Shown here: positions 20,086 to 27,001 of the stretch, one piece after another | How the letters are laid out: the number at the start of each line of letters is the position of its first letter | How positions within the stretch are numbered: position 1 is the stretch's first letter | Origin: Luteibacter flocculans | Lineage (GTDB): Bacteria; Pseudomonadota; Gammaproteobacteria; Xanthomonadales; Rhodanobacteraceae | NCBI RefSeq assembly: GCF_023612255.1 | Contig: NZ_CP063231.1 | Location: 1,718,001 to 1,782,000 of the forward strand | Reading direction: 5' to 3' | Length of the DNA stretch: 64,000 bases | Notes under the pieces: generated by a model | The model's input: only the letters and a program-made list of their open reading frames with translations | Told to the model about the DNA's origin: nothing | Database searches by the model: none | Made by a program: the position numbers and the translations under genes

Positions 20086-21204
20086 ATGCATCCCGCCAGA
20101 GCGACCCGGCTCATCTTTCTTCTTTCCGGCATCGGCATGGCCAGTTGGGCGCCGATGGTGCCGTACGCGAAAGCCCGGCTCGGCCTGGACGACGCCATGC
20201 TGGGCCTCGTGTTGTTGTGTATGGGTTGCGGTGCCGTGGCGGCGATGCCGCTGGCGGGTTTTCTCAGCAACCGCTACGGCAATCGTGACGTCATCTGCAT
20301 CAGCGCGTTGCTGGTCTGCGTGGCCTTGCCGCTGCTGACCGTCGTGCCCAATGTCTATGCGCTGGGTGCCGCGCTGCTGTTCTTCGGCGCGTCGTTGGGC
20401 GTGGTGGACGTGGCCATGAACGCGCATGCGGTGGACGTGGAGAAGCATGCGGGCAGACCCATGATGTCCGGCTTCCACGGTCTTTTCAGCGTGGGTGGTC
20501 TGGTCGGTTCCGCGGGCATGGCGGGCTTGCTGAAGGTCGGTGCGCCGCTCACCGGCAGTGCGCTCGCGGTGTCTGCCGCTCTGCTGGTCATCGTGCTGAC
20601 CCAGTGGCGGCATTTCCTCGTGCGCCTCGACGACGACGGTCAGACGCATTCGATCTTCCGGTTGCCGTCGGCGTCGGTGTTCCTGCTGGGCTTCCTCTGT
20701 CTCGTGGTGTTTCTTGCGGAAGGCGCGATGCTCGACTGGAGCGCCGTGTTCCTGCGCTTCTCGCGCGGCTTCGATCCTTCGCTGGCGGGGCTCGGCTATG
20801 CCGCCTTCTCCGTGGCGATGGCCAGCGGTCGCCTGCTTGGCGATCGCATCACCGCTTCGCTCGGACCCGTGTCGATCGTCCGCTTCGGTGCCTTCGTCGC
20901 TGCACTGGGCTTCTTCCTCGCCACCCTCCTGCCGTGGGGGCCGACGGCGCTGCTGGGCTTCGTACTGGTTGGCCTGGGCGCATCCAACATCGTGCCGGTG
21001 CTGTTCAGCGCCGCGGGGCGACAGCCCAACACCTCGCCCGGCATCGCCATCGCCGCGGTGACCTCACTCGGCTACGCGGGCATGCTCGCCGGCCCGGCGG
21101 TCATTGGTTTCGTCGCTCATCTCAGCAGCCTGTCCATCGCCCTGTGTGGCGTGGCGGTGCTGCTCATCGTCGTCTCGTGCTGCGCGTCCATCGCGCGGCG
21201 TTGA
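20086..21204 (+). CDS. MFS transporter
   Basis: The 372-residue major facilitator has twelve likely helices. It shows the loop 2-3 signature (G-F-L-S-N-R-Y-G-N-R) and a central break at H-F-L-V-R-L-D-D-D-G. The mid-section D-V-A-M-N-A-H-A-V-D-V-E resembles the YbjJ/fucose-permease-like group. The substrate is not predictable. I preferred ATG 20086, which has GAGG six bases upstream, over ATG 20071 and an upstream basic extension. It is divergent from lexA. The HAD gene follows after 19 bases, suggesting one transcript with the phosphatase and DeoR regulator. Confidence 0.88.
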   Translation: MHPARATRLIFLLSGIGMASWAPMVPYAKARLGLDDAMLGLVLLCMGCGAVAAMPLAGFLSNRYGNRDVICISALLVCVALPLLTVVPNVYALGAALLFFGASLGVVDVAMNAHAVDVEKHAGRPMMSGFHGLFSVGGLVGSAGMAGLLKVGAPLTGSALAVSAALLVIVLTQWRHFLVRLDDDGQTHSIFRLPSASVFLLGFLCLVVFLAEGAMLDWSAVFLRFSRGFDPSLAGLGYAAFSVAMASGRLLGDRITASLGPVSIVRFGAFVAALGFFLATLLPWGPTALLGFVLVGLGASNIVPVLFSAAGRQPNTSPGIAIAAVTSLGYAGMLAGPAVIGFVAHLSSLSIALCGVAVLLIVVSCCASIARR

Positions 21205-21223
21205 CCTCTTTCAAGGAACAGCC

Positions 21224-21844
21224 ATGCACAGCAAGCGCGATGTGGTCATCTTCGATTTCGGCGGCGTGCTGATCGATTGGAATCCGCGTTATCTCTATCG
21301 GAAGTTGTTCGGCGACGATGAGGAAGCAATGGAAACCTTTCTCGCGGAGGTGACCACGCCGGAATGGAACCTGCAGCAGGATGCCGGGCGTTCGTGGGAC
21401 GAAGCGGTCCGCCTGCTCACCGAGCAACACCCGACCAAGGCGGAACTCATCGCCGCGTACCAGCATCGCTGGGAGGAGACGCTCGGCGGTTCGATCGACG
21501 ACAGCCTGCGCATCCTGCGCGAACTGAAAGAGGCGGGGCACCCTCTGTACGGACTCACCAACTGGTCGCACGAAACATTCCCGTTTGCACGCGAGCGGTT
21601 CGATTTCCTCACCTTGTTCGACGGCATCGTCGTGTCGGGTGAGGAGGGCATGATCAAACCCGATCCGAAACTCTATCGAACCCTGCTCGATCGCTACGAC
21701 ATCGATCCCACGCGTGCCGTATTCATCGATGACAACAAGACGAACGTAGAGGCCGCCGACGCTCTGGGCATCCATGGCATCCACTTCCATACGCCGGAGC
21801 AGTTGCGCGCTGACCTGGTGGAACTCGGTTTCCTGGCGCAGTGA
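21224..21844 (+). CDS. HAD superfamily phosphatase
   Basis: The 206-residue HAD hydrolase has motif I D-F-G-G-V in V-I-F-D-F-G-G-V-L-I-D-W-N, motif II T-N-W-S, motif III Lys in G-M-I-K-P-D-P-K, and motif IV F-I-D-D-N. Here the usual D-x-D of motif I is D-F-G, as in the epoxide-hydrolase/YihX-like branch, where YihX (an alpha-glucose-1-phosphatase) also has this form. A sugar-phosphate substrate is likely. CAAGGAAC precedes the ATG. Its stop overlaps the GTG of the regulator gene by 4 bases. Confidence 0.88.
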   Translation: MHSKRDVVIFDFGGVLIDWNPRYLYRKLFGDDEEAMETFLAEVTTPEWNLQQDAGRSWDEAVRLLTEQHPTKAELIAAYQHRWEETLGGSIDDSLRILRELKEAGHPLYGLTNWSHETFPFARERFDFLTLFDGIVVSGEEGMIKPDPKLYRTLLDRYDIDPTRAVFIDDNKTNVEAADALGIHGIHFHTPEQLRADLVELGFLAQ

Positions 21845-22611
21845 ACGTTCCGCTCGACACGACACTGCCGCGCGAGCGGCAGCAACGGATTCTCGATCGG
21901 CTCAACCGCGAGGGGCGCGTCGTCGCGGCCGACCTGGCTCAGGAATTTCGGGTTTCGGAAGATTCCATTCGCCGTGACCTGCGCGATCTCGCATCTCAGG
22001 GGCTGTGTCGCCGCGTCTATGGCGGCGCACTGCTTGTTCAGCACGTGGCGCCGCTGGGCGAGCGCCATCAGGAGCGGGCAGAATTGAAGCGGGCCTTGGC
22101 CCATGTCGCCGCTGAGCTGGTCGGGGAGGGGCAGATCCTCTTCATCGATGCGGGTTCGACCAATACCGCACTGGCAAAGGCGTTGCCGGACCATCGCGAT
22201 CTCACCGTCGTGACGAATGCACCTGATGTCGCGACGGCGGTGCTGGGGCGGCCGGGTTTCGAAGTGATTCTTCTCGGCGGGCGACTGGACCCACGTATCG
22301 GCGGCGCCATCGGTTCGCGCACGGTGCGCCAGGCACAGGACATCCGCGCCGACCTGTGTTTTCCCGGCGTCTGCGCCATCGATCCGCAACGCGGACTATG
22401 GACGATCGACGAGGAGGAAACGGTGTTCAAGCAGGCGATCATCGAAGCCAGCGGCGAAACCGTGGCGATCGCCACGCCCGACAAGCTGGTGGCCTCGGCC
22501 ACCCATCACACGGCGCCGATTACCGGTATCGCCCATCTGGTAGTGGCGCCCGATACCGATCTCGCGATGGTAGCTCGCTATCGCGACGCTGGTGTGGCCG
22601 TGCATATGTAA
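21841..22611 (+). CDS. DeoR/GlpR-family transcriptional regulator
   Basis: The 256-residue protein has the DeoR N-terminal helix-turn-helix (R-Q-Q-R-I-L-D-R-L-N; D-S-I-R-R-D-L-R-D-L) and the C-terminal isomerase-like sensor (I-D-A-G-S-T-N-T-A-L-A-K; S-G-E-T-V-A-I-A-T-P-D-K). DeoR proteins repress sugar-phosphate genes and are released by the phosphorylated sugar. It starts at GTG, overlapping the phosphatase stop (GTGA), so it is translationally coupled. The likely target is its own operon: MFS transporter, HAD phosphatase, regulator. Confidence 0.92.
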   Translation: MNVPLDTTLPRERQQRILDRLNREGRVVAADLAQEFRVSEDSIRRDLRDLASQGLCRRVYGGALLVQHVAPLGERHQERAELKRALAHVAAELVGEGQILFIDAGSTNTALAKALPDHRDLTVVTNAPDVATAVLGRPGFEVILLGGRLDPRIGGAIGSRTVRQAQDIRADLCFPGVCAIDPQRGLWTIDEEETVFKQAIIEASGETVAIATPDKLVASATHHTAPITGIAHLVVAPDTDLAMVARYRDAGVAVHM

Positions 22612-22624
22612 TCGCCGACGGGGT

Positions 22625-22654
22625 CGGCTCCCGCCGATGGATCGGTGGGAGCCG
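22625..22654. terminator. Near-perfect 30-base palindrome between deoR and the actin-like gene
   Basis: CGGCTCCCGCCGAT and ATCGGTGGGAGCCG flank a GG centre with only one G-T mismatch. The arms contain the REP-like GGCTCCC/GGGAGCC core. It has no T tract, but it sits between two convergent genes and could stop transcription from both. Confidence 0.6.
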
Positions 22655-22693
22655 TAAGTTCCTGTCGCATTGGGGGCATTGCTCTGTGTGCCG

Positions 22694-23458
22694 TCATATC
22701 GGGCGTTCTCGACGCAAGATGGGCAGGTCCACTTCGCGATACTCAGCACGGGAAATAAAGCCGTTTTGGTCAGACCTGATGAGGGCCTCGATCGAGCCGC
22801 CTAGCCACGAGGCATTGCGTGAATTGGCAGGGGTGCTCAGGTTGATCACCGTATTCGGTGGCGCAAGCGCCTTGATCCCTTCCTTCAGCGAGGCGGCTAT
22901 TTTTTCGTCGATCTCGCCCGCCAGCACGATGTTCCCGAGCAACGCGGAACGGACTTCGTCATCAGTTTTCTTGATGACATTGTAGGTCAGCGTAGCGAGC
23001 TGCTGCCCGCCGGCATAGTTTTCGCGCAAGACAGCATGAAGCACCACTTCATTGTGCTTTACGGCAGCCGCCTCCATCTCGCCTGCGCCTACATGAACGA
23101 CGACACCCGTGGACGCGCCTTGCAACGTCAGTACCGCTGCTGCCCTGCTTTGTGCGAAAAAACCAGGGACGTTGAATGTCTCAAAAGCGATCTGCGTTAT
23201 CTTTTCCAAATCGGCTTTCAGCATAAGCGGGCGCCAGACTGTGAAAAGAGGTCTCTCGTCCGGCAACACGTCCATTTTGGAAAACGCCTGCGCTACAAGG
23301 TGTTCGTAAGCGTCCCAATTCACGGCTTCTTTTCGTGAAGAGGAACCACCTGGCATGCGATCTAACGTGGTGGCGCTCCATCGGGGCGTCTCCTCTCCCG
23401 CAAATCCAGCACGTATCGACGCCACGTCGATATCTATCACCACTGGCTTCCCGTCCAT
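22694..23458 (-). CDS. Actin-like protein reduced to subdomains 1 and 3
   Basis: The 254-residue protein aligns with eukaryotic actin from N to C terminus, not with MreB or ParM. Blocks: residues 6-26 (A-G-F-A-G-E-E-T-P-R; actin 8-28), 48-98 (N-W-D; L-K-A-D-L-E-K-I-T-Q-I-A-F-E-T-F-N; actin 78-130), 99-150 gapless with actin 131-182, and 160-254 (actin 280-375, including A-L-A-P, W-L-G-G-S-I and F-I-S-R-A-E-Y). Two segments are missing: most of subdomain 2 (actin 29-77 reduced to 21 residues) and subdomain 4 (actin 183-279 reduced to 9). Nucleotide-site residues are altered: G13, S14 and G15 become D, V and A; Q137 becomes R105; D154 becomes H122; D157 becomes A125; G302 becomes E182. It lacks a signal peptide. 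A strong Shine-Dalgarno sequence, lower GC than its neighbours and flanking hairpins suggest an acquired, expressed gene. The family is confident; the function is unknown. Confidence 0.88.
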   Translation of the reverse strand: MDGKPVVIDIDVASIRAGFAGEETPRWSATTLDRMPGGSSSRKEAVNWDAYEHLVAQAFSKMDVLPDERPLFTVWRPLMLKADLEKITQIAFETFNVPGFFAQSRAAAVLTLQGASTGVVVHVGAGEMEAAAVKHNEVVLHAVLRENYAGGQQLATLTYNVIKKTDDEVRSALLGNIVLAGEIDEKIAASLKEGIKALAPPNTVINLSTPANSRNASWLGGSIEALIRSDQNGFISRAEYREVDLPILRRERPI

Positions 23459-23463
23459 GTCTT

Positions 23464-23471
23464 ACCTCCTT
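23464..23471 (-). promoter_or_regulatory. Consensus Shine-Dalgarno of the actin-like gene
   Basis: On the minus strand AAGGAGGT lies five bases before the ATG, a full anti-16S match and the best ribosome site seen in this part of the window. It argues that the gene is translated in the bacterium and is not a chance fragment. Confidence 0.85.
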
Positions 23472-23587
23472 GTTGACGCGATGCAATCAAGCGTTAAAGC
23501 CACCCCTGTGTGTCGAAAGCTAGACCGCGAGCAGTGAAAGCCGGGTTAACGTTTGCGCCCGCACGCGACAGCATTTGCTTGGTCAAA

Positions 23588-23615
23588 AAAACGGCGGGCC
23601 TGAGCCCGCCGTTTT
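23588..23615 (-). terminator. Rho-independent terminator of ppsA
   Basis: Arms AAAACGGCGGGC / GCCCGCCGTTTT enclose a four-base loop. On the minus strand the hairpin is followed by a run of seven T. It lies 8 bases after the ppsA stop and isolates the actin-like gene from ppsA transcription. Confidence 0.93.
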
Positions 23616-23622
23616 AGCTTTT

Positions 23623-25995
<2,373 letters not shown>

Positions 25996-26158
25996 AGGAA
26001 AGTCCTCACATCGGTTCGTCGGTTTTGCGGCGGGCCGCGCTAGAAAATCCGCGCATTGTCGAGTGCCGGTCGCAGCCGATACAAGGCGCGATGCACAAAC
26101 GTTCAGGGATCATGCGGGGTGGATTGTCATCCCGGCGTCTTGCGCTAAGGTGGTTCCC

Positions 26159-27001
26159 ATGAGCCAAACGCAGGGAAAACGCCCGATGCGCCGCACCGTG
26201 TTCTTCATCTCCGATTCGACCGGCATCACGGCCGAGACCATCGGCAACAGCATGCTCGCTCAGTTCGAGGGGGTCCAGTTCGACACCCACCGGTTGCCCT
26301 TTATCGACAACCCGGCGAAGGCCGAGGCGGCGTCGCTGCGCATCAAGACCAAGTACGCCCAGGACGGTCAGCGGCCCATTGTGGTCAATACGATGACGTC
26401 GCGAAGCCTCTGCGACATCGTGGCCGGCAGCGGTGCGTTGATGCTCGACGTGTTCGCCCCCTTCATCGAGCCTCTGGAGGCCGAACTGGGCGCGAAGCAA
26501 TCCGGCGCTGTGAACCGGTCCCACGGCCTGGTGGATTTTGAACGTTACGAGGCCCGCATCGAGGCCACGAACTACGCCCTGGCGCACGACGACGGCCTGG
26601 ACGTGGATTACAACCAGGCCGACGTGGTGCTGGTCGGGGTGTCCCGTTCGGGCAAGACCCCCACCTGCCTCTACATGGCCTTGCATTACGGGGTGTGTGC
26701 CGCCAACTATCCGCTCACGGACGACGACCTCGACAAGCTGGAACTGCCGACCCGCCTCCGCCCTTACCGCAGCCGGCTGTTCGGCCTGACCATCGATCCG
26801 GTCCGCCTGGCACAGATCCGCGAGCAGCGCCGCCCCGGCAGCCGCTACGCCACATTGAAGCAATGCCGCTGGGAACTGGAACAGGCCGATCGCCTGATGC
26901 GCCGGGAGAACATCCCCGTCCTCAACACCACGCACACCTCGATCGAGGAAATCTCCAGCAAGATCTTCGAGTACCTCGGTATCGAGCGCCACATGTATTA
27001 G
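26159..27001 (+). CDS. ppsR: PEP synthase regulatory kinase/phosphorylase
   Basis: The 280-residue DUF299 protein inactivates PEP synthase by ADP-dependent phosphorylation of a Thr next to the catalytic His, and reactivates it by Pi-dependent phosphorolysis. It begins V-F-F-I-S-D-S-T-G-I-T-A-E, carries the P-loop G-V-S-R-S-G-K-T and ends T-S-I-E-E-I-S-S-K-I. Its divergent position to ppsA fits this pairing. The frame is open upstream, but only ATG 26159 (or 26186) gives the family N terminus. Confidence 0.95.
   Translation: MSQTQGKRPMRRTVFFISDSTGITAETIGNSMLAQFEGVQFDTHRLPFIDNPAKAEAASLRIKTKYAQDGQRPIVVNTMTSRSLCDIVAGSGALMLDVFAPFIEPLEAELGAKQSGAVNRSHGLVDFERYEARIEATNYALAHDDGLDVDYNQADVVLVGVSRSGKTPTCLYMALHYGVCAANYPLTDDDLDKLELPTRLRPYRSRLFGLTIDPVRLAQIREQRRPGSRYATLKQCRWELEQADRLMRRENIPVLNTTHTSIEEISSKIFEYLGIERHMY

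What the first reader, a model, noticed from the sequence alone, without database searches (positions are those of the whole stretch)
22694..23458. A bacterial protein that is eukaryotic-type actin without subdomains 2 and 4
Seen: the 254-residue product aligns with conventional actin along its whole length in four nearly gapless blocks, including A-G-F-A-G, L-E-K-I-T-Q-I-A-F-E-T-F-N, W-L-G-G-S-I and the extreme C terminus. By hand I count 24 identities over 53 aligned actin positions (78-130). Two clean deletions remove about 28 residues of subdomain 2 (D-loop region) and about 88 residues of subdomain 4. Known: these are insertions into the two RNase H-like halves, so what is left is the conserved core, subdomains 1 and 3. 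MreB, ParM and MamK are far more distant; actin-like bacterial proteins close to eukaryotic actin are very rare (a Haliangium case has been reported). Inference: an acquired, reduced actin doing something new, possibly binding partners that recognise the barbed face.
Basis: partly seen in the sequence, partly recalled or inferred. Interest (0 to 1): 0.96.

Follow-up and report, generated by a model that had tools for sequence, protein, structure and literature searches.

The report
Half-sized bacterial actin lacking ATP site
A bacterium carries, as a lone inserted gene, a eukaryotic-type actin cut down to half of its fold and with its ATP site changed beyond recognition; two other bacteria carry similar half-actins, so such trimming may be a recurrent way of turning actin into something that is no longer a filament.

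Summary
The ORF (minus strand, 23458-22694, 254 aa) matches Pfam Actin at E 1.3e-31, lacks 29 residues in the subdomain 2 region and 88 in the subdomain 4 region, and is predicted to keep the actin fold. It is a single-gene insertion: 20 of 20 readable congeners have about 40-211 bp between the flanking DeoR and ppsA genes, the window 1,011 bp. Two things change the picture. First, most ATP-site residues are replaced or deleted, and only 2 of 13 barbed-end cleft residues are unchanged, so a normal filament or normal profilin/gelsolin-type binding is unlikely. Second, it is not unique: a filamentous cyanobacterium (265 aa) and a Saprospiraceae MAG (284 aa) hold similar half-actins, and the NCBIfam model syringactin (286 positions) appears to have the same reduced layout; the window protein scores 68 bits against its cut-off of 300. 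Most likely it is a domesticated, nucleotide-free, non-polymerising actin core used as a binding module in the bacterial cytoplasm. The partner is unknown, and function is inferred, not shown.

The parts
22694..23458 (-). reduced eukaryotic-type actin gene, 254 aa
   Evidence: ORF; PF00022 E 1.3e-31; actin fold by AlphaFold2 (best of five models pLDDT 87.4, pTM 0.85; the five range 73.5-87.4) and Foldseek (E 1.4e-24, TM 0.83 by query length, 0.58 by target length)
23321..23362 (-). residues 33-46, the short stretch left where subdomain 2 (D-loop) should be
   Evidence: alignment to actin; low confidence in the model (blocks of 64 and 72)
22994..23011 (-). residues 150-155, junction that replaces subdomain 4
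   Evidence: alignment: actin 183-244 and 250-275 missing
23464..23471 (-). Shine-Dalgarno sequence AAGGAGGT
   Evidence: sequence
22655..23587 (.). inserted segment of about 933 bp holding only this gene; boundaries approximate
   Evidence: 20 of 20 readable congeners have about 40-211 bp between DeoR stop and ppsA stop, window 1,011 bp
23588..23615 (.). hairpin with T-run between ppsA and the actin gene; ppsA terminator as a reading
   Evidence: the scan lists it on the + strand; 2 sites found where shuffles give 1.2 on average; a similar hairpin stands at this place in congener locus L072
22625..22654 (.). hairpin beyond the DeoR gene, left edge of the insertion
   Evidence: homology to congener locus L057 ends at 22653
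23623..25995 (-). phosphoenolpyruvate synthase-type gene (name ppsA recalled), upstream neighbour
   Evidence: PPDK_N and PEP-utilizers domains; its 3' part found in 22 of 23 genus genomes including the own one
21841..22611 (+). DeoR-family regulator, convergent downstream neighbour
   Evidence: DeoRC and HTH_DeoR; present next to ppsA in 20 congeners

Best explanation
A horizontally acquired, domesticated pseudo-actin. SHOWN (by sequence and prediction): it is the subdomain 1+3 core of eukaryotic-type actin, with subdomains 2 and 4 removed and most residues that hold ATP and catalyse hydrolysis replaced; it sits alone between ppsA and a DeoR gene, where 20 congeners have nothing. INFERRED: with no nucleotide, no D-loop and no subdomain 4 it folds as a stable monomer and cannot make an actin-like filament. 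It stays in the bacterial cytoplasm (no signal peptide seen by eye; no type III or type VI secretion apparatus found) and works as a protein-binding scaffold or adaptor for a partner not yet known, using a surface different from actin's hydrophobic barbed-end cleft.
For: Actin family and fold. Reduction. Nucleotide site: G13D, S14V, K18R, Q137R, D154H, D157A, G302 and T303 deleted (roles of residues recalled). It is also largely lost in the other two half-actins (L034 keeps D11; L035 keeps D11, G13, G158, T303, K336), while most full-length bacterial actins keep more of it. Held as coding sequence: no stop in 254 codons where about 10 are expected by composition, end branch of 3.24 changes per site with a predicted actin fold, good Shine-Dalgarno. 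Lone insertion. Two more half-actins, in a cyanobacterium on a 5.4 Mb scaffold and in a Saprospiraceae MAG (L034 model pLDDT 91.1). None of the three half-actin genomes has a match to the T6SS sheath PF05943 or a match over the hrcV type III cut-off; none has another actin match except a weaker one that I read as MreB. In actin held inside the TRiC chaperonin, subdomains 2 and 4 are the more disordered part and make less contact than the barbed end (passages of PMC9113939), so the retained half is a plausible folding unit.
Against: No partner, expression, or conserved gene neighbourhood was found. The protein is in only 1 of 149 relatives searched, the own genome, so selection in the present host cannot be measured. 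Some nucleotide-site residues are kept (D11, G156, G158, G182), and the reading rests on alignment, not on a binding test. The three half-actins are only 27-34% identical to each other, while they are 31-35% (window), 32-41% (L034) and 38-48% (L035) identical to full-length actins; neither their common origin nor their independence is established (AU p 0.32), so a shared function is not shown. The structure models lean on alignments made mostly of full-length actins. The L035 genome is a MAG of unknown completeness, so absences there are weak. Secretion by other routes was not tested.
Confidence: 0.5

Rival explanations
1. Actin mimic released or delivered to a eukaryotic neighbour (fungus, amoeba, plant), where it occupies actin-binding or filament-end sites and disturbs the actin cytoskeleton.
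For: Eukaryotic type of the fold. Three of three tandem full-length eukaryote-type actins in an alphaproteobacterial MAG (Candidatus Finniella) start with sequences that look by eye like signal peptides, so export of actin by bacteria is plausible elsewhere. The name syringactin points to Pseudomonas syringae, which has type III secretion (recalled).
Against: No signal peptide is visible here; no T6SS sheath match and no hrcV match over the type III cut-off in this genome or in the other two half-actin genomes. The target-binding cleft is mostly not conserved. Other secretion routes were not tested.
Confidence: 0.2
2. A relic without function in this host: an actin fragment carried in by chance and on its way out.
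For: Absent at this place in 20 congeners and found only in the own genome among 149 relatives; extremely long branch; degenerate active site.
Against: Intact 254-codon frame where composition predicts about 10 stops, good ribosome-binding site, predicted fold, and a similar reduced layout in two other bacteria and in the NCBIfam syringactin model.
Confidence: 0.17
3. A minimal actin that still polymerises, in a new geometry and without normal nucleotide control.
For: The core of the fold and part of the subdomain 3 contact region (D286, R290, P322) are kept. Bacterial actin relatives form varied filaments (recalled).
Against: The D-loop and subdomain 4, which make the long-pitch contacts in actin (recalled), are absent; the nucleotide site is mostly lost.
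Confidence: 0.1
4. Artefact: mis-assembly, contamination or chance similarity.
For: Three actin hits in public MAG contigs do look like contamination (L039, L044, L046).
Against: Single-contig 4.3 Mb genome with genes shared by the genus on both sides; shuffles score at most 3.7 bits against 137.9.
Confidence: 0.02

Closest known systems
Syringactin (NCBIfam NF040575, equivalog model, 286 positions)
   Same: Best NCBIfam hit (E 5.3e-19; the only other hit up to E 1 is a transporter model, TIGR00949, E 0.0062, 16 bits against a cut-off of 184). The model aligns with the 265-aa cyanobacterial half-actin in one stretch (7-263 to 6-284), so it too appears to lack most of subdomains 2 and 4.
   Different: 68 bits against a cut-off of 300. 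The window protein is shorter still, where subdomain 4 would be. No sequence above the cut-off was obtained and the word is in no paper of the held library, so its function, if known, is unknown to me.
Half-actins of filamentous cyanobacterium ESFC-1 (L034, 265 aa) and a Saprospiraceae MAG (L035, 284 aa)
   Same: Same two regions removed and the ATP site largely lost; Pfam Actin at 175 and 182 bits; L034 model pLDDT 91.1.
   Different: 27% and 29% identical to the window protein; deletion ends differ; L035 keeps 22 aligned positions of subdomain 4; the tree does not group them.
ActM of Microcystis aeruginosa (eukaryote-type actin)
   Same: Eukaryote-type actin acquired by a bacterium (abstract and introduction of PMC3254629).
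   Different: Polymerises and is encoded beside a profilin (abstract and introduction); its length was not tested here. The window protein is reduced, lacks most of the ATP site, and no profilin was found in the genome (no positive control).
BARP of Haliangium ochraceum
   Same: Actin homologue in a bacterium (passages of PMC3035250).
   Different: Sequence not obtained; its layout was not compared.
MreB, ParM, MamK, FtsA, crenactin and other prokaryotic actin-like families
   Same: Actin superfamily fold.
   Different: No Pfam MreB_Mbl or other family listed up to E 1 and no NCBIfam MamK, BeeR or crenactin hit up to E 1 for the window protein.

Membership tests
Actin family (Pfam PF00022) | score above the curated cut-off | tested here: met
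   110.1 bits against 27
Conventional eukaryotic actin | four subdomains | tested here: not met
   16 of 37 subdomain 2 positions and 7 of 89 subdomain 4 positions aligned (boundaries recalled)
Conventional eukaryotic actin | ATP-binding residues (roles recalled) | tested here: not met
   G13D, S14V, K18R, Q137R, D154H, D157A, G302 and T303 gapped; D11, G156, G158, G182 kept
Conventional eukaryotic actin | ATP-dependent polymerisation | not testable with these tools
   needs purified protein
Syringactin (NF040575) | equivalog cut-off of 300 bits | tested here: not met
   68.3 bits
Syringactin (NF040575) | reduced layout, about 286 positions with subdomains 2 and 4 mostly missing | tested here: inconclusive
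   model positions line up with half-actins L034 and L035 and with the window protein at both ends, but no true member was at hand
MreB/ParM/MamK group | better score to these than to actin | tested here: not met
   no such hit up to E 1
Type III or type VI effector | secretion apparatus in the genome | tested here: not met
   PF05943 0 matches (the control rang in E. coli); hrcV best 611 bits against cut-off 692, read as flagellar FlhA (no control genome over the cut-off, but G1425 gave 911 bits)
BARP | sequence and layout of the Haliangium protein | not tested
   sequence not obtained

The most novel reading that the evidence does not exclude
Bacteria that acquire eukaryotic actin repeatedly strip it to the two RNase H-like cores, subdomains 1 and 3, and give up the ATP site, making a new class of nucleotide-free, non-polymerising half-actins. 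Here actin would have become a plain binding module, seen in this presumed gammaproteobacterium, a cyanobacterium, a Bacteroidota member and, by its model, in the syringactin family.
Probability: 0.42. Interest if true: 0.82.

Novelty: new variant of a known kind. Interest (0 to 1): 0.63.

Why it matters
Actin is among the most constrained proteins of eukaryotes because of its filament and its many partners. A bacterial copy freed of both shows which half can fold and be kept without ATP, polymerisation or actin-binding proteins. If half-actins arose independently, they are natural experiments on the minimal actin fold. If they share one origin, they are an overlooked bacterial protein family moving between phyla. 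Either way they give a small, testable scaffold with no assigned function.

Tried and rejected
Single-protein scan of genome contigs: 164 pattern matches, no relative; an alignment scan gave 13 loci. Viral, phage and plasmid collections: no relatives with the queries used. Of the 13 loci I set aside L039, L044 and L046 as probable eukaryotic contamination (partial or split frames, near-identity to actin): L039 was kept as a eukaryotic row in the tree, L044 was aligned but left out of the tree, L046 was not aligned. The other loci were not all checked for contamination. The tree does not place the window protein: 1 of 14 inner branches starred, 10 open, bootstrap not settled, long branches meeting. 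Target-site repeats for the insertion: none convincing. No Rfam match in 21000-26500. Promoter scan of 22500-23700: none found. Viral fold library: best a giant-virus actin-related protein of 278 aa (Hokovirus, TM 0.72 by query length), next a feline sarcoma virus kinase protein at E 1e-8 and TM 0.35, then weaker hits, many Hsp70-like. In one search the MFS and dnaE2 codon figures used wrong frames and are not used; one search gives corrected ones (no dnaE2 there). The idea of barbed-face binding was rejected on the cleft residues.

Full report
WHAT IS THERE. The gene is on the minus strand, 23458 to 22694, 254 codons. It starts with ATG 5 nt after AAGGAGGT. Pfam gives Actin, 110.1 bits, E 1.3e-31, and lists no other family up to E 1 (253 of 254 residues given). 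NCBIfam gives syringactin at E 5.3e-19 and one weak transporter model at E 0.0062, both under their cut-offs. Solved structures: 153 distinct sequences match up to E 1; the 60 listed are actins, best E 2.1e-29. A profile of 13 full-length actins (12 from bacterial records, 1 eukaryotic) scores the protein at 137.9 bits, against 3.7 for the best of 200 shuffles.

REDUCTION. Aligned to gamma-actin, 253 residues align with 87 identities (34%). Missing (gaps of 5 or more) are actin 39-54 and 65-77, and 183-244 and 250-275. By subdomain, with boundaries recalled: subdomain 1 has 134 of 145 positions aligned, subdomain 2 16 of 37, subdomain 3 96 of 104, subdomain 4 7 of 89. AlphaFold2 on an alignment of 11 sequences gives pLDDT 87.4 and pTM 0.85 for the best model; the five models range from 73.5 to 87.4, residues 246-254 are under 50 and the subdomain 2 remnant is weak. 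Eight of the 11 rows are full-length actins, so the prediction leans on them. Foldseek against the PDB gives actins first, E 1.4e-24, TM-score 0.83 by query length and 0.58 by actin length.

THE ATP SITE AND THE CLEFT. At the residues that hold nucleotide in actin (roles recalled), the window protein has G13D, S14V, K18R, Q137R, D154H and D157A, and lacks G302 and T303; D11, G156, G158 and G182 are kept. Of 13 positions of the hydrophobic cleft between subdomains 1 and 3, 2 are unchanged (G146, I345), 4 are conservative (T148S, I341L, L349I, T351S) and 7 are not (Y143T, A144L, G168N, Y169E, L346E, F352D, M355G). L034 keeps 6 of the 13 and L035 keeps 5; both have largely lost the nucleotide site (L034 keeps D11; L035 keeps D11, G13, G158, T303 and K336). 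Most full-length bacterial actins in the alignment keep more of the site, though several (for example L036, L038, L040, L041) have changes in it.

LONE INSERTION. The 3' end of ppsA with its downstream flank was sought in 23 genus genomes, own included; 22 matched. Both flanks could be read in 20 of the 21 other matching genomes; in the remaining one (L060) only the ppsA side matched, close to the end of its contig. In all 20 the DeoR gene and ppsA are separated by about 40-211 bp, counted between the places that match the window's two stop codons; in the window by 1,011 bp. The inserted stretch, about 22655-23587, holds only this gene. It has GC 0.56 and the gene has GC3 0.63, against GC3 0.73-0.86 in 11 other genes of the window (gene names there recalled). 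I saw no transposase or integrase frame in it and no convincing target repeat. Among 149 relatives only the own genome has the protein; among 398 genomes of the order only the own genome has a match to the syringactin model.

IS IT CODING. In 5,000 mononucleotide shuffles none lacked in-frame stops, mean 10.2. The tree gives the protein an end branch of 3.24 changes per site. A frame that has changed so much without a stop and still predicts the fold has, I infer, been held as a protein for most of its history. Whether it is held in the present host cannot be told from one genome.

RELATIVES. A scan of the 84,980-species genome collection with an actin-guided alignment gave 13 loci. I took 3 of them as likely eukaryotic contamination (L039, L044, L046). 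Of the other 10, 8 encode full-length or nearly full-length actins (362-397 aa as cut by my script) and 2 encode half-actins: L034, filamentous cyanobacterium ESFC-1, 265 aa, on a 5.4 Mb scaffold; and L035, Saprospiraceae MAG, 284 aa, on an 8.5 kb contig with other genes that look bacterial by eye. Their Pfam Actin scores are 175 and 182 bits. L034 folds with pLDDT 91.1. Missing actin residues: L034 39-69 and 188-268; L035 37-46, 61-65, 176-232 and 254-268. The ends differ between the three proteins, and I saw no shared neighbouring genes in the stretches read. The tree of 17 rows is mostly unresolved; holding the three half-actins together is not rejected (p 0.32), which shows neither one origin nor several. 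In the two other genomes no second eukaryote-type actin was found, only a weaker match that I read as MreB.

KNOWN FAMILY. NCBIfam holds 'syringactin', 286 positions. Against it the cyanobacterial half-actin aligns in one stretch from 7-263 to 6-284, and the best stretch of L035 is 184-283 to 184-284. So the model itself appears to describe an actin with most of subdomains 2 and 4 missing. The window protein reaches 68.3 bits, far under the cut-off of 300, so it is a distant relative and not a member. I did not obtain a true syringactin: 0 of 398 genomes of a family and 0 of 398 of a genus that I take to be Pseudomonadaceae and Pseudomonas were over the cut-off (identification from a PrrF RNA), and the word is in no paper of the held library. 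Other literature searches (listings only; plus passages of PMC3035250 and PMC6906331, abstract and introduction of PMC3254629, abstract of PMC12645912) showed other bacterial actins (BARP, ActM, Uab actin) but no description of a half-actin.

HOW IT MOST LIKELY WORKS. Shown: actin core fold by prediction, ATP site mostly lost, no subdomain 2 or 4, lone gene. Inferred: a monomeric, nucleotide-free binding module in the cytoplasm. Against delivery into another cell: no signal peptide by eye, no T6SS sheath match, and one hrcV match of 611 bits under the type III cut-off of 692, most likely flagellar FlhA; the other two half-actin genomes have no match to either (one of them is a MAG). Profilin was not found in 11 genomes, but that search had no positive control. 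In the TRiC-actin complex subdomains 2 and 4 are more disordered and make less contact than the barbed end (passages of PMC9113939), which fits the retained half being a folding unit.

TAXON. The genome is one 4.3 Mb contig; its name is not told. That its class is Gammaproteobacteria follows only from the Pseudomonas-type RNA in a genome of the same class. That it is near Luteibacter or Dyella is a guess from gene content, recalled and untested.

VERDICT. A real, unusual gene: a new variant of the known, rare kind 'eukaryotic-type actin in bacteria', close in layout to syringactin, a curated model for which I found no paper. Interest 0.63; the bolder reading, a recurrent class of nucleotide-free half-actins, 0.82 if true.

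Noticed in passing
L098:8766-12517 (also L087; Candidatus Finniella inopinata MAG, contig CAMASM010000008.1): Three tandem full-length eukaryote-type actin genes (413, 414, 401 aa), each starting with a sequence that looks by eye like a Sec signal peptide, on a contig whose other frames look bacterial: possibly exported actins of an intracellular alphaproteobacterium. One literature search held 122 papers, 8 listed, none of the 8 with the word Finniella.
   Followed up: partly
L049, L052, L053 (genomes G990, G1396, G1425, a genus I take to be Pseudomonas): Full-length eukaryote-type actins (370, 362, 371 aa) in 3 of 398 genomes. In G990 and G1396 they lie near a similar aldo/keto-reductase-like gene and the G1396 frame ends early; in G1425 the gene follows a SelO-like gene (names recalled).
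   Followed up: partly
L004:1495-2565 (genome G550, same class, 2.4 Mb): Actin of 356 aa, E 1.4e-123 to Pfam Actin, beside a gene that looks like fusA and on the same contig as an MreB-like match, so not obvious contamination.
   Followed up: no
L039, L044, L046: Actin fragments in bacterial MAG contigs that look like eukaryotic contamination: close to conventional actin, split or cut frames.
   Followed up: partly
Hokovirus HKV1 protein A0A1V0SF23 (fold library): Best viral fold match of the window model is a 278-aa giant-virus actin-related protein, TM 0.72 by query length and 0.67 by target length; it may be another shortened actin.
   Followed up: no
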